Shown here: one piece after another, positions 1 to 50,115 of the stretch
Layout of the letters: each line of letters begins with the position of its first letter
Position numbering within the stretch: position 1 is the stretch's first letter
NCBI RefSeq assembly: GCF_014211915.1
Contig: NZ_CP060039.1
Coordinates: 310,001 to 374,000, forward strand
Source: Burkholderia cenocepacia
GTDB taxonomy: Bacteria; Pseudomonadota; Gammaproteobacteria; Burkholderiales; Burkholderiaceae
DNA length: 64,000 nt
Reading direction: 5' to 3'
Position numbers and translations under genes: made by a program
The notes under the pieces: model-generated
What the model saw: only the letters and a program-made list of their open reading frames with translations
Told to the model about the DNA's origin: nothing
Databases searched by the model: none

Positions 1-556
1 GCGCCAGCCCGGCCGACCGGTTGCCCATCACGCGCTCGATGTACGCATCGGTGTGCGCGCCCACCAGCGTCTCGGGCAGCGGCTCGGGCTGGATCAGGAA
101 GAACCAGTGGAAATACGCGGTCGCGAACGCGCGATCGGTTTTCTCGTACATCGCGAGTGTCGGCGCGATATCGAGCAGCATCATCCTCTCGACGGCGTCC
201 GCGTGATCGAGCGCGAGCCGGTGCGCGACCCGCGCGCCGCGATCGTGCGCGCACACGTGGAACTGCTCGAAGCCGAAATGCCGCATCACGGCGACCTGGT
301 CCGCCGCCATCGCCCGTTTCGAATACGGCGTGTGCCGCGCGTCGCTCGGCGGCCGGCCCGATGCGCCGTAGCCGCGCAGGTCGGTGGCGATCACCGTGAA
401 GTGATTCGCGAGCGTCGCCGCAACGCGATGCCAGATCATGTGGGTCTGCGGATGGCCGTGCAGCAACAGCAACGGCGGACCCGTGCCTCCTTTGACACCG
501 AAAATGTCGGTGTCCTGCACCGTCACGCGAAACGGTGCAAACGCCTCAAACGACAT
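1..556 (-). CDS. Fluoroacetate/haloacid dehalogenase-like alpha/beta hydrolase (3' part outside window)
   Basis: The first 185 residues of an alpha/beta hydrolase read from an ATG at 556 to the window edge, so the C-terminus with the catalytic His is missing. Visible are HGHPQTH (oxyanion region, from residue 33), DLRGYG (59-64) and a nucleophile elbow HDRGAR with Asp105, Arg106 and Arg109. H150-W151 falls where fluoroacetate dehalogenases place their fluoride-binding His-Trp pair. In that family the Asp attacks the carbon-halogen bond and the two arginines hold the carboxylate. An epoxide hydrolase would also use Asp, but the Arg pair and the HW motif favour a haloacetate dehalogenase. The natural substrate is inferred only. 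It is divergent from the nitronate monooxygenase gene. Confidence 0.75.
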   Translation of the reverse strand, partial: MSFEAFAPFRVTVQDTDIFGVKGGTGPPLLLLHGHPQTHMIWHRVAATLANHFTVIATDLRGYGASGRPPSDARHTPYSKRAMAADQVAVMRHFGFEQFHVCAHDRGARVAHRLALDHADAVERMMLLDIAPTLAMYEKTDRAFATAYFHWFFLIQPEPLPETLVGAHTDAYIERVMGNRSAGLA

Positions 557-46930: not shown

Positions 46931-48166
46931 TCACGGATTGATGTACTGGAACAGCGAAAGGTTCTGCAACTGCGCGTAAGCCTTCTGCGACCCCGTCAGC
47001 GCGTTCTGCATCTGCAGGAACTGGCTGATCGTCGCGACCATGTTGGTGCTCGTCAGGTCGGCCAGGTTGCTGCTGACCTGCAGCGTGTTGGTCTGGTTCA
47101 CGGCCTGCATCGCCTTGATTTCCTGCTCGCGGCCGCCGACCGACGCCTGCACCGTGAGGACGTTCGTCATCATGTTGTTCAGCTTGGTCGTGCCGGTGGT
47201 CATCGCGTTCGCGAGCGCGGTCGCGGCGCTCGTGTTGCTGCTGATCGGCACCTTCAGCGCGGCGATCATCGTGTCGAGCGCCGCGAACACGTCGGTGCCG
47301 GCCTGCGGCGCGGGCGTGACCGTGAACGTGTCGCCCGGCGCCGGCTTGCCCGACACGGGCACCGACAGGCCGTTGCCGAGCGCGATCCCGGCGCCGTCCG
47401 AATACGGTTGCGCGGTCGTCGTGGTCGGCGGCACGACGGTGTTGTCGGTCACCGTGTAGGTCGGCGCGGCGGCCGTGCCGCCGAACGCGATCGTGAACTG
47501 GTGCGCGTTGGACGCGGCCGACGGGCTCGTGATCGTCACGCCGCCGATCGTGCCCGTGCCGGTGTTGGCCGCGCCGGCGAGCGGCACCGGCTGGCTGCCG
47601 AGCATCGGCACCGACAGGAACACGTTCGCGCCGTTGTCGCCCTGCGCGATCGAGCGCGTGTCGGCGATCTGCACCTGGCGCGAGCCGGTGTCGCCGCTGT
47701 AGGTCACGCCGCCGCCCGGCGCGTTCGAGAACGGCGCGGTGGCCGACTGGAAGCCCGCGAACAGGTAGTTGCCCGAGCCGTCCGTCGAATTCGCGAGCGT
47801 CAGCAACTGGTCGCGATAACCCTGCAGCTGCGTCGACAGTGCCGAGCGATCGCTGTCCGACAGCGAACCGTCGCCGGCCTGGATCACGACCGTGTGAATG
47901 CTGTTGAGCAGGTTGTTGACGCTGATGAGCGTCTGGTCTTCCTTCTGCAGCGACGACAGCGCGGCGTTCTGGTTCGACGCGTACTGCGACAGCGTCGCCG
48001 ACGTCATCGACAGCTGCACGGCCTGCGCCGCGCCGAGCGGGTTGTCGGCCGGCGTCGCGAGGCTCACGCCGCTCGAGATCTGCTGGTACAGCTGCGAGAG
48101 CTGCGCCTGCTGGTCGCTCATCTGGGCGACGTTCATCTGGTAGAACTGCGCAGTGGAAATCCGCAT
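46931..48166 (-). CDS. flgL: Flagellar hook-associated protein 3
   Basis: A 411-residue hook-filament junction protein. The flagellin-like N-terminus MRISTAQFYQMNVAQM...SSGVSLATPADNPLGA and C-terminus LTGSQKAYAQLQNLSLFQYINP polymerise at the hook tip; the middle is a variable exposed domain. Residues about 199-285 form an insert that closely resembles one in the adjacent FlgK. It follows flgK with a 17-bp gap. Confidence 0.95.
   Translation of the reverse strand: MRISTAQFYQMNVAQMSDQQAQLSQLYQQISSGVSLATPADNPLGAAQAVQLSMTSATLSQYASNQNAALSSLQKEDQTLISVNNLLNSIHTVVIQAGDGSLSDSDRSALSTQLQGYRDQLLTLANSTDGSGNYLFAGFQSATAPFSNAPGGGVTYSGDTGSRQVQIADTRSIAQGDNGANVFLSVPMLGSQPVPLAGAANTGTGTIGGVTITSPSAASNAHQFTIAFGGTAAAPTYTVTDNTVVPPTTTTAQPYSDGAGIALGNGLSVPVSGKPAPGDTFTVTPAPQAGTDVFAALDTMIAALKVPISSNTSAATALANAMTTGTTKLNNMMTNVLTVQASVGGREQEIKAMQAVNQTNTLQVSSNLADLTSTNMVATISQFLQMQNALTGSQKAYAQLQNLSLFQYINP
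47310..47570 (-). repeat. Shared insert domain, FlgL copy
   Basis: Encodes FlgL residues about 199-285. About two thirds of residues match the FlgK copy at 48507-48782, with the 15-residue block GGTAAAPTYTVTDNT identical in both, and DNA similarity is also visible by eye. Confidence 0.8.
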
Positions 48167-48183
48167 CGCTTCGATCCCCGAAA

Positions 48184-50115
48184 TCAGTTGAACAGGCCGA
48201 GCACGGTCTGGAACAGCGTCGACGCGGTCTGGATCACCTTCGCGTTCGCCTGGTAGAGCTGCTGGTACTGCATCAGGTTGGCCGCTTCCTCGTTCTGGTT
48301 CACGCCCGACACCGACTGCTGCGCCTGCGTGATCTGGCCGACCAGCGCGGTCTGCGCGGCGCTCGACGACTTCAGCTGGCTCGCCGTGTTGCCGATGCCG
48401 TTCACGTAGTTCGCGTACGCGCCCGTCAGCGTGGCCGAGCCGTTGCCGAACGATTTCGCGTTGACGAGCTTCGACAGCGCGAGCGCGTTGCTGCCGTCGT
48501 TCGTGCCGCCCGTGTTCGGCGCGACCTTGAACGTGTCGCCCACCGCCGGCGTGCCCGACACCGTCACCGTGACGCCCGCCGTCAGCGTGATCGGCGAGCC
48601 GGACTGGTACGGCTGCGCGGCGCTGGTCGTCGGCGGCACGGCCGTGTTGTCGGTGACCGTGTAGGTCGGCGCAGCCGCCGTGCCGCCCATCGTGATCGTG
48701 TAGTTGTGCGGGTTGGCCGCGGCCGTCGCGCTCGTGACCGACAGCCCGCCGATCGTGCCGTTGCCGGTGTTGGTCGTCGTGGCCGACGGCACGTACGGCG
48801 CGGCCGCCGCGATCGCGGAGCCGTTCGACGTCGTGAGGCCGAAGCCGTTCAGCGCGCCGCGCGTCGGCTGCACGGTGAACTTGTCGCCGGCGCTCATCGA
48901 GCCGGACGAGAACGAGAAGTTCAGCCCGCCGATCGAGGCCGGCATCGACGTCGACGTACCGACCACCGTGCCGGTCGCACGATCGGTCAGCGTGTAGTTC
49001 GTGCCGTCGTACGCGAGCGTGTAGTCGCTGGTGGTCGGCTGCGCCGCGTTCGCGAACGACACGGACAGCGCCGCATTGCCGGTATTGCCCTGGTTCGCGT
49101 AGGTGATCGGCGTGCCGGTCGAAAACAGGTTGCCGCCGACCTTGCCCGACAGGTCGATGCCGAGCGCGTTCTGCGCGTTGACCTGCGCGGCGAAGCTGGT
49201 CGCGATCGCGCCGAGCTGCGCTTCGGCCGGGTCGAGCGTCTGGCTGCGGAACGCGAGCAGGCCGCCCAGCGTGCCGCCCGACAGCGACGCGTCGGACAGG
49301 AACTGGTTCGGCCCCTGCGGGGTCGCGCCGGCGATGCCCTGCGACACGACGGTCAGCTCGCTCGGATCGGACGGCGACGTGACGGTCGCGAGCTGGTAGC
49401 TCTTGTCCGCGACGACGAGCGGCGTGCCGCCCGACATGAACACGCTGTAGCCGTCGCTGTTGCGCACCACCTGCACGCCCGCGAGATTCGACAGGTTCGA
49501 CACCGCGAGGTCGCGCTGGTCCATCAGCTGGTTCGGCGGCTGGCCCTGGCTGCTCGCCGCCGCGATCTGCTGGTTCAGTTGCGCGATCTGCGCGGTGTAC
49601 GCGTTGATCTGCGTGACGGTGCTGGTGAGCTGCGTGTTCACGCTCTGGCGCAGCGCGTCGTACTGCTGGCCGGCCGCCGTGATCTGGTTCGCGAGCGTCT
49701 GCGCATTGCTCATCGCGGTCTGCCGCACCGACGAGTCGGACGCGCTGTTCGCGACGTTCTGCATCCCGGTGAAGTAGCTCGTGATCGCGGTCGAGATGCC
49801 GGCCGTCGGGCTGCCGATGTAGTTGTTCAGCTGCGTGACGAGCGAGTACCACGTCGACAGCGCGCCGCCCTGCGTCTGCGCGCCGTTCAGCTGGTCGCTC
49901 AGGTACTGGCTGTACTGCCGCTGCACGGTGACGGTGTTCACGCCCTGCGGCATGTAGCCGCTGCTGGTGTACTGCCCGCTTGCCTCGGCATAGACGGGGC
50001 GTTCGACCGAATAGCCGGGCGTCGCGGCGTTGCTGATGTTCTGGCCGGTCGTCGTGAGGCCCCAGAGCGCGGCATTCAGGCCGCTGACACCGAGGTTCAT
50101 GAGTGAGTTGGACAT
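48184..50115 (-). CDS. flgK: Flagellar hook-associated protein 1
   Basis: A 643-residue hook-filament junction protein. The N-terminus MSNSLMNLGVSGLNAALWGLTTTGQNISNAATPGYS is the rod/hook-family motif, and the C-terminus VSGVNQNEEAANLMQYQQLYQANAKVIQTASTLFQTVLGLFN is equally typical. The central domain contains an insert (about 445-536) shared with FlgL. A sigma-28 promoter precedes it at 50171-50197, so flgKL are late flagellar genes. Confidence 0.96.
   Translation of the reverse strand: MSNSLMNLGVSGLNAALWGLTTTGQNISNAATPGYSVERPVYAEASGQYTSSGYMPQGVNTVTVQRQYSQYLSDQLNGAQTQGGALSTWYSLVTQLNNYIGSPTAGISTAITSYFTGMQNVANSASDSSVRQTAMSNAQTLANQITAAGQQYDALRQSVNTQLTSTVTQINAYTAQIAQLNQQIAAASSQGQPPNQLMDQRDLAVSNLSNLAGVQVVRNSDGYSVFMSGGTPLVVADKSYQLATVTSPSDPSELTVVSQGIAGATPQGPNQFLSDASLSGGTLGGLLAFRSQTLDPAEAQLGAIATSFAAQVNAQNALGIDLSGKVGGNLFSTGTPITYANQGNTGNAALSVSFANAAQPTTSDYTLAYDGTNYTLTDRATGTVVGTSTSMPASIGGLNFSFSSGSMSAGDKFTVQPTRGALNGFGLTTSNGSAIAAAAPYVPSATTTNTGNGTIGGLSVTSATAAANPHNYTITMGGTAAAPTYTVTDNTAVPPTTSAAQPYQSGSPITLTAGVTVTVSGTPAVGDTFKVAPNTGGTNDGSNALALSKLVNAKSFGNGSATLTGAYANYVNGIGNTASQLKSSSAAQTALVGQITQAQQSVSGVNQNEEAANLMQYQQLYQANAKVIQTASTLFQTVLGLFN
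48507..48782 (-). repeat. Shared insert domain, FlgK copy
   Basis: Encodes FlgK residues about 445-536. It is the partner of the FlgL insert at 47310-47570 (NTGNGTIGG start, then GGTAAAPTYTVTDNT, then SGTPAVGDTF). Confidence 0.8.

What the first reader, a model, noticed from the sequence alone, without database searches (positions are those of the whole stretch)
47310..48782. FlgK and FlgL carry a homologous ~90-residue insert
FlgL residues about 199-285 and FlgK residues about 445-536 align end to end: NTG-GTIGG, TS..AA.N.H, the identical block GGTAAAPTYTVTDNT, VPPTT, QPY, VSG.P..GDTF. About 56 of 86 aligned positions are the same by eye, and the DNA is visibly similar. The two proteins are otherwise related only at their ends, so this looks like a module copied between adjacent genes or homogenised by gene conversion. 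It lies in the surface-exposed domain of both hook-filament junction proteins. Partner copies could contact each other at the junction or the module could be an antigenic or sugar-binding element.
Basis: partly seen in the sequence, partly recalled or inferred. Interest (0 to 1): 0.72.

Follow-up and report, generated by a model that had tools for sequence, protein, structure and literature searches.

The report
FlgL domain copied into neighbouring FlgK
In a group of Burkholderia bacteria, one outer domain of the flagellar junction protein FlgK has been replaced by a copy of the outer domain of its neighbour FlgL, which suggests that these two stacked flagellar parts can trade domains.

Summary
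In detail: FlgK residues 449-533 and FlgL residues 201-285 align without gaps at 56 of 85 residues and 200 of 255 bases, while 150 bases on either side fall to 58 of 150. It is a replacement, not an insert. Unconverted relatives have FlgK's own third domain (Pfam PF21159) there. In 24 of 65 genus genomes PF21159 is gone and a FlgL-type module stands in its place; the other 41 keep PF21159, without overlap. The FlgL type is FlgL's own across the family, and the new FlgK modules resemble the FlgLs of other genera in the same graded way as FlgL itself does, so the copy went FlgL to FlgK. There were probably at least two events: one genome's FlgK module groups with its own FlgL (100/98; 96/99). 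Whether the main donor was a FlgL inside the genus or its stem is unresolved. Continuing homogenisation is not shown. Six genomes of another Burkholderiales family show the reverse, a FlgK-like body in FlgL. The shared fold was published in 2018; my searches found no report of the exchange. Gene conversion and function are inferred.

The parts
48184..50115 (-). flgK, 643 aa
   Evidence: ORF; TIGR02492 314.3 bits, cut-off 170.75
46931..48166 (-). flgL, 411 aa
   Evidence: reading frame and start; TIGR02550 311.8 bits, cut-off 127.2
48517..48771 (-). FlgL-type module in FlgK (residues 449-533), recipient copy standing in place of D3/PF21159
   Evidence: 200 of 255 bases identical to the FlgL module, flanks 58 of 150; no PF21159 in this genome
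47312..47566 (-). D2 module of FlgL (residues 201-285), donor type
   Evidence: FlgL-type module found in FlgL of the family genomes fetched; PF21158 24.3 bits as a piece
48865..49098 (-). FlgK D2 domain (residues 340-417), PF21158, not exchanged
   Evidence: E 4.5e-11
48751..48771 (-). left border stretch coding NTGNGTI in FlgK, similar in FlgL and in unconverted FlgK
48523..48552 (-). right border stretch coding SGTPAVGDTF in FlgK, similar in FlgL and in unconverted FlgK
   Evidence: position from the module coordinates

Best explanation
In an ancestor of a Burkholderia cepacia complex lineage, the distal beta domain of FlgK (D3, PF21159) was overwritten by a copy of the D2 domain of FlgL, whose gene lies next to it. 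The event has the shape of ectopic gene conversion: a tract of about 255 bases, ending in short stretches (coding NTGTGTI and SGxPAxGDxF) that the two ancestral domain types already shared, went from flgL to flgK without changing gene order or frame. The copy was then inherited in FlgK and diverged from FlgL. A second such event probably happened in another Burkholderia genome (G043), and a FlgK-like body entered FlgL in another family. The likely job of the module is that of the domain it replaced: a surface-exposed beta-sandwich decorating the FlgK ring at the hook-filament junction, tolerant of replacement because the inner D0-D1 core does the assembly. Shown: the replacement, and its direction by distribution and similarity gradient. 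Well supported: a second origin; no strong continuing homogenisation. Inferred: gene conversion as the molecular mechanism, a donor in the same cell, and the function.
For: (1) PF21159 is in 41 of 65 genus genomes; a second FlgL-type match in flgKL is in the other 24; compared handle by handle, the two sets do not overlap. (2) Other genera carry the non-FlgL type in FlgK: the 44 such K modules put in a family tree (39 from other genera, 5 from the genus; L156 left out) form one side of a branch, converted K modules falling on the FlgL side (97); PF21159 is found in 72 of 135 other-genus family genomes. (3) The converted K module's scores over the FlgL modules of 141 genomes outside the main clade follow those of the clade's FlgL (Spearman 0.963; 0.942 for 97 outside the genus); unconverted K 0.701 and 0.568 (six genomes averaged for each profile). 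(4) With FlgLs of sister genera as outgroup, converted K and genus FlgL modules stand together (92/92). (5) L113: the FlgK and FlgL modules of one genome group at 100/98 and 96/99; one origin for all 17 converted K used is rejected (AU p 0.028) and occurs in 0 of 200 or 3% of 200 bootstrap trees. (6) Flank identity drops to near background (mean 90 of 255) at the borders.
Against: Nesting of the main converted K clade inside the genus FlgLs is not shown: a tree with 16 converted K modules outside all genus FlgLs is not rejected (AU p 0.432). At protein level, all K as one clade (p 0.46) and seven converted K as one clade (p 0.248) are not rejected, and with L113 set aside converted and unconverted K lie on one side of a branch (95/93), the converted ones between the two types (97 columns). 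The L113 test was run after the pattern had been seen. The template could have been flgL of another species. No structure shows the module in place; the FlgK model is poor (mean pLDDT 45.9).
Confidence: 0.85

Rival explanations
1. Ancient retained similarity: the FlgL-like form is an old FlgK lineage that stayed close to FlgL, and PF21159 is the derived form in the other relatives.
For: In unrooted protein trees converted FlgK modules lie between PF21159-type and FlgL modules, and all K as one clade is not rejected (p 0.46).
Against: 78% DNA identity to the same genome's flgL; similarity that fades with distance as FlgL's does; patchy presence in 24 of 65 genus genomes; none in the 39 other-genus genomes.
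Confidence: 0.05
2. Continuing concerted evolution: flgK and flgL modules keep converting each other, so similarity is maintained.
For: A slight excess of concerted over crossed site patterns (236 against 154); permutation p 0.063.
Against: K and L of one genome are 77.3% alike and of different genomes 77.0%, while K-K is 90% and L-L 91%; 4594 site patterns separate the two genes.
Confidence: 0.04
3. Allelic spread: one conversion, then transfer of the converted flgK between species explains every converted genome.
For: L075 has a main-type module on a different flgK backbone; flgK and flgL backbones disagree for L081.
Against: L113's FlgK module groups with its own FlgL (100/98, 96/99) and one origin is rejected (p 0.028, named after the fact). 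True in part for L075 and perhaps L081, L084 and L086.
Confidence: 0.15
4. Convergent selection made the two outer domains alike so that like packs on like at the ring boundary.
For: A D2-D2 contact between FlgK and FlgL has been proposed (PMC6155364, passages).
Against: Third codon positions are as alike as the rest (65 of 85) and borders are sharp; convergence would not do this.
Confidence: 0.01

Closest known systems
Structural likeness of FlgL D2 and FlgK D2 (Song et al. 2018, PMC6155364; abstract and passages seen)
   Same: FlgL D2 and FlgK D2 share a beta-sandwich fold (Xanthomonas FlgL against B. pseudomallei FlgK, rmsd 1.8-1.9 A over about 80 C-alpha), and a quasi-homotypic D2-D2 contact was proposed for B. 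pseudomallei.
   Different: That is ancient fold similarity of FlgL D2 to FlgK D2. Here the next FlgK domain, D3, is replaced, with DNA-level identity to FlgL.
B. pseudomallei FlgK structure 4UT1 (entry; its paper not read)
   Same: Close relative of the window's FlgK, aligned over query residues 30-643.
   Different: At this place its sequence is of the ancestral type and longer (alignment; not scanned with PF21159 here).
Gene conversion between paralogous genes (general process, recalled)
   Same: Directional transfer of a short tract between related genes without change of gene order.
   Different: Here a whole domain moves between two proteins of different layers of one machine, across a divergence that leaves only short border similarity, and is seen in both directions in different families.

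Membership tests
FlgK (TIGR02492) | whole-protein score over the curated cut-off | tested here: met
   314.3 bits against 170.75
FlgL (TIGR02550) | whole-protein score over the curated cut-off | tested here: met
   311.8 bits against 127.2
FlgK D3 domain (PF21159) | match over 24.7 bits in FlgK | tested here: not met
   12.1 bits on the module as a piece; no match in G000, present in 41 of 65 genus genomes
FlgK D2-like domain (PF21158) | match over 24.2 bits | tested here: met
   FlgK module 24.7 and FlgL module 24.3 bits as pieces; both borderline, and whole FlgL gives 19.4
FlgL D2 beta-sandwich | fold match of the modules to solved FlgL D2 | tested here: inconclusive
Gene conversion tract | sharp borders and similarity to the donor gene only inside the tract | tested here: met
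   flanks 58 of 150 bases on both sides, tract 200 of 255
Gene conversion tract | recipient module nested among donor-gene modules | tested here: inconclusive
   L113 FlgK with its own FlgL 100/98 and 96/99; nesting of the other 16 not resolved (AU p 0.432)
Concerted evolution | paralogues of one genome more alike than between genomes | tested here: not met
   0.7726 against 0.7700, p 0.063

The most novel reading that the evidence does not exclude
FlgK and FlgL outer beta domains form one exchangeable pool: whole domains pass between the two junction proteins in both directions by gene conversion, so that the outer faces of the two stacked rings can be re-set quickly and together, either because like domains pack on each other across the ring boundary or because a changed surface is favoured.
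Probability: 0.3. Interest if true: 0.7.

Novelty: new variant of a known kind. Interest (0 to 1): 0.5.

Why it matters
Outer domains of flagellar axial proteins are known to vary, but how they come and go is rarely caught in the act. Here recipient, donor gene, direction and borders can be read from extant genomes, with a probable independent repeat and a reverse case in another family. It gives a natural experiment on whether the FlgK and FlgL outer domains must match each other, as proposed from structures in 2018, and it warns that the solved B. pseudomallei FlgK is not a safe model for the third domain of FlgK in many B. cepacia complex species.

Tried and rejected
Considered and rejected or demoted: 'insert'; continuing homogenisation; an ancient retained K lineage; further copies in this genome (two places only). 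In checking this report I withdrew an earlier claim that the DNA tree shows the main converted FlgK modules nested inside the genus FlgLs: the 100/100 branch there only holds L114-L116 together. I also withdrew 'faster amino-acid change after the copy': K-L pN/pS is 0.77, against 0.45 and 0.40 within the K and L modules, but FlgL against FlgL rises with distance too (from the pS and pN, about 0.54 to the nearest unconverted genomes and 0.81 to L114-L116).

Literature: five searches (FlgK and FlgL with gene conversion; B. pseudomallei FlgK structure and epitope; FlgK and FlgL with paralogue, recombination and domain, 15 of 69 listed; FlgK and FlgL with Burkholderia and D2 domain; flagellin with gene conversion, 12 of 13 listed) showed no title or abstract start that reports FlgK-FlgL domain exchange; the library holds open-licence PMC papers only. 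Seen as passages: PMC6155364, PMC5691160, PMC12221982, PMC4615220. The 4UT1 paper (10.1111/febs.13223) is not held and was not read.

Full report
What is in the window. The minus strand carries flgK (48184-50115, 643 aa) and flgL (46931-48166, 411 aa), 17 bases apart. Both exceed the curated cut-offs of their NCBI models. FlgK residues 449-533 and FlgL residues 201-285 align without a gap: 56 of 85 residues, 200 of 255 bases, 65 of 85 third codon positions; 150 bases on either side drop to 58 of 150. The next best in-frame placement of the FlgL module on flgK gives 112 of 255, and 300 shuffles top out at 133 against a score of 349. No other place in the genome matches.

What the module is. As cut-out pieces both modules match Pfam PF21158, the FlgK D2-like domain, just over its cut-off (24.7 and 24.3 bits against 24.2). 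FlgK has another PF21158 domain at residues 340-417. In the two unconverted FlgKs that were scanned whole, L167 (Burkholderia sp. Bp9143) and L171 (B. ubonensis), the place of the window's FlgK module is filled by PF21159, the FlgK D3 domain (E 1e-36 and 1.1e-38). The window's FlgK has no PF21159 (12.1 bits on the piece; no match in the whole genome). So this is a replacement, not an insertion.

Distribution. I fetched flgKL from 60 further genus genomes and 40 genomes of other genera in the family; both proteins were found in all 100. Scores between the FlgK and FlgL modules of one genome are split: 22 of 101 genomes score 245-346 (the window and 21 genus genomes), one multi-module genome (L156) 234, the remaining 78 score 151 or less. 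In the full held set of 65 genus genomes, 24 have a FlgL-type match in flgK as well as in flgL (G060's second match lies elsewhere, at C1:772217, and is not counted), and PF21159 is found in 41 of 65. Compared handle by handle, the 24 without PF21159 are the 24 with the FlgL-type module. Fifteen of the 16 Burkholderia loci with organism names could be tied to my set by identical flgK and flgL sequence. Twelve of those 15 are converted: B. cenocepacia NCTC13227, B. arboris, B. puraquae, B. lata, B. catarinensis, B. aenigmatica LMG 13014, B. paludis, B. ambifaria RZ2MS16, B. cepacia LK29 and strains BCC0506, BCC1289 and SRS-46. Three are not: Bp9143, lig30 and B. ubonensis. The sixteenth, D-99, was not classified. 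In the family sample PF21159 was found in 82 of 150 genomes, 72 of them among the 135 of other genera. Absence there is not conversion: G074 and G075 have a FlgK of the other type that is too divergent for the model.

Direction. The FlgL-type module is FlgL's own throughout the family genomes read, and FlgK has the other type outside the genus. In a joint protein tree of the genus the converted FlgK modules stand with the FlgL modules, apart from the 39 unconverted FlgK modules (support 100), and the same split holds with 39 genomes of other genera added (97). The sharpest test is a gradient: over the FlgL modules of 141 genomes outside the main converted clade, the converted FlgK module's scores follow those of the clade's own FlgL (Spearman 0.963; 0.942 for the 97 outside the genus), whereas unconverted FlgK modules agree less (0.701 and 0.568, six genomes averaged for each profile). 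Mean scores fall from 292 (clade 1) to 107 (class) for the converted FlgK against 103 to 79 for unconverted FlgK. A FlgK lineage retained since the old split of the two domain types would not fade with distance as FlgL does. Against this: the protein trees place most converted modules between the two types, and all K as one clade is not rejected (p 0.46).

Donor and number of events. With FlgLs of two sister genera as outgroup, converted FlgK and genus FlgL modules stand together (92/92); 16 converted FlgK modules form one group (94/93), but whether it sits inside or just outside the genus FlgLs is not resolved (AU p 0.432). On trees of the rest of flgK and of flgL the converted state needs four and five changes. 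Some of these may be spread of converted alleles between species: L075's module is of the main type, though not, and L081 shows a flgK and a flgL of different ancestry. So probably at least two copying events, with some lateral spread.

After the copy. In the main clade (17 genomes) K-K modules are 90% and L-L 91% identical in DNA, K-L 77.3% within and 77.0% between genomes (permutation p 0.063). Concerted site patterns slightly exceed crossed ones (236 against 154) beside 4594 that separate the genes. Continuing homogenisation is thus not shown, though rare later exchange is not excluded. Uncorrected synonymous distance between the modules (pS 0.273) lies between that of the clade's FlgL to eight near unconverted genomes (0.248) and to L114-L116 (0.330), which suggests a copy early in the radiation of the genus. 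K-L pN/pS is 0.77, but FlgL against FlgL also rises with distance (about 0.54 and 0.81 for those two comparisons), so a speed-up after the copy is not shown.

Borders. Both domain types begin with a stretch coding N-x-G-x-x-x-I and end with one coding S/A-G-x-P-x-x-G-D-x-F in the genomes shown (in two of the eight FlgLs shown the right pattern was not recovered). These are natural places for a short conversion tract to start and stop. That it was gene conversion, and that donor and recipient were in one cell, is inference.

The reverse case. Among the 57 order- and class-level genomes examined (those with the best FlgL scores), the FlgL modules of three genomes of one unnamed Burkholderiales family (f15: L179, L180, L188) group together (99) on the FlgK side of a 225-row tree (90). 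L179's FlgL module scores 275 to a FlgK module of another family but at most 172 to any FlgL outside f15; for L180 the figures are 229 and 182, for L188 219 and 191. Of 22 f15 genomes searched, 21 had a match. In six of genus g39 (G338, G210, G257, G535, G532, G537) the best outside match of the FlgL module is a FlgK; on mean scores three of them favour FlgK (G338, G210, G532) and three are near ties, so the call of six rests partly on reading the sequences. Their left arm stays FlgL-like, so the exchange looks partial. The other nine printed favour FlgL; of the last six, two favour FlgL and four have no such domain.

Structure and function. The FlgL model (mean pLDDT 63.3; 77-86 over residues 221-280 and 54-64 at the module's ends) matches solved two-domain FlgLs over most of its length, with high rmsd. 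The FlgK model is too poor to use, so a fold comparison of the two modules was not achieved; at 66% identity the same fold is expected. In the published Salmonella junction the D2 domains of FlgK and FlgL are exposed (PMC12221982, passages). The similarity of FlgL D2 and FlgK D2, and a possible D2-D2 contact in B. pseudomallei, were proposed in 2018 (PMC6155364, passages). The best-supported reading is an exposed structural decoration that tolerates replacement. Antigenic or sugar-binding roles have no evidence here.

Verdict. Its reading as copying is right and as homogenisation is not; 'insert' should be 'replacement of FlgK D3'. I found no report of such an exchange in the searches made. 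It is a clear and apparently recurrent case of a known kind of process in an unexpected place.

Noticed in passing
L156 (G076, another genus of the family): FlgL has three tandem D2-type modules (620 aa) and FlgK is enlarged too (753 aa).
   Followed up: partly
family f15 genomes, L179, L180, L196, L232-L249: FlgL outer region varies from absent to a FlgL-type module, a FlgK-like module, or a much longer region, within one family.
   Followed up: partly
L081 (G025): The flgK backbone groups with the main converted clade but the flgL backbone with the L084/L086 clade, as if the operon had recombined between species.
   Followed up: no
G060:C1:772217-772435: Weak match (E 3.5e-5) of the FlgK module to a 228-aa frame away from flgKL, the only such case listed in 65 genomes.
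   Followed up: no
window, FlgK residues about 330-428 (-): The FlgK D2 region has pN/pS 0.59 within the main converted clade, higher than either exchanged module.
   Followed up: no
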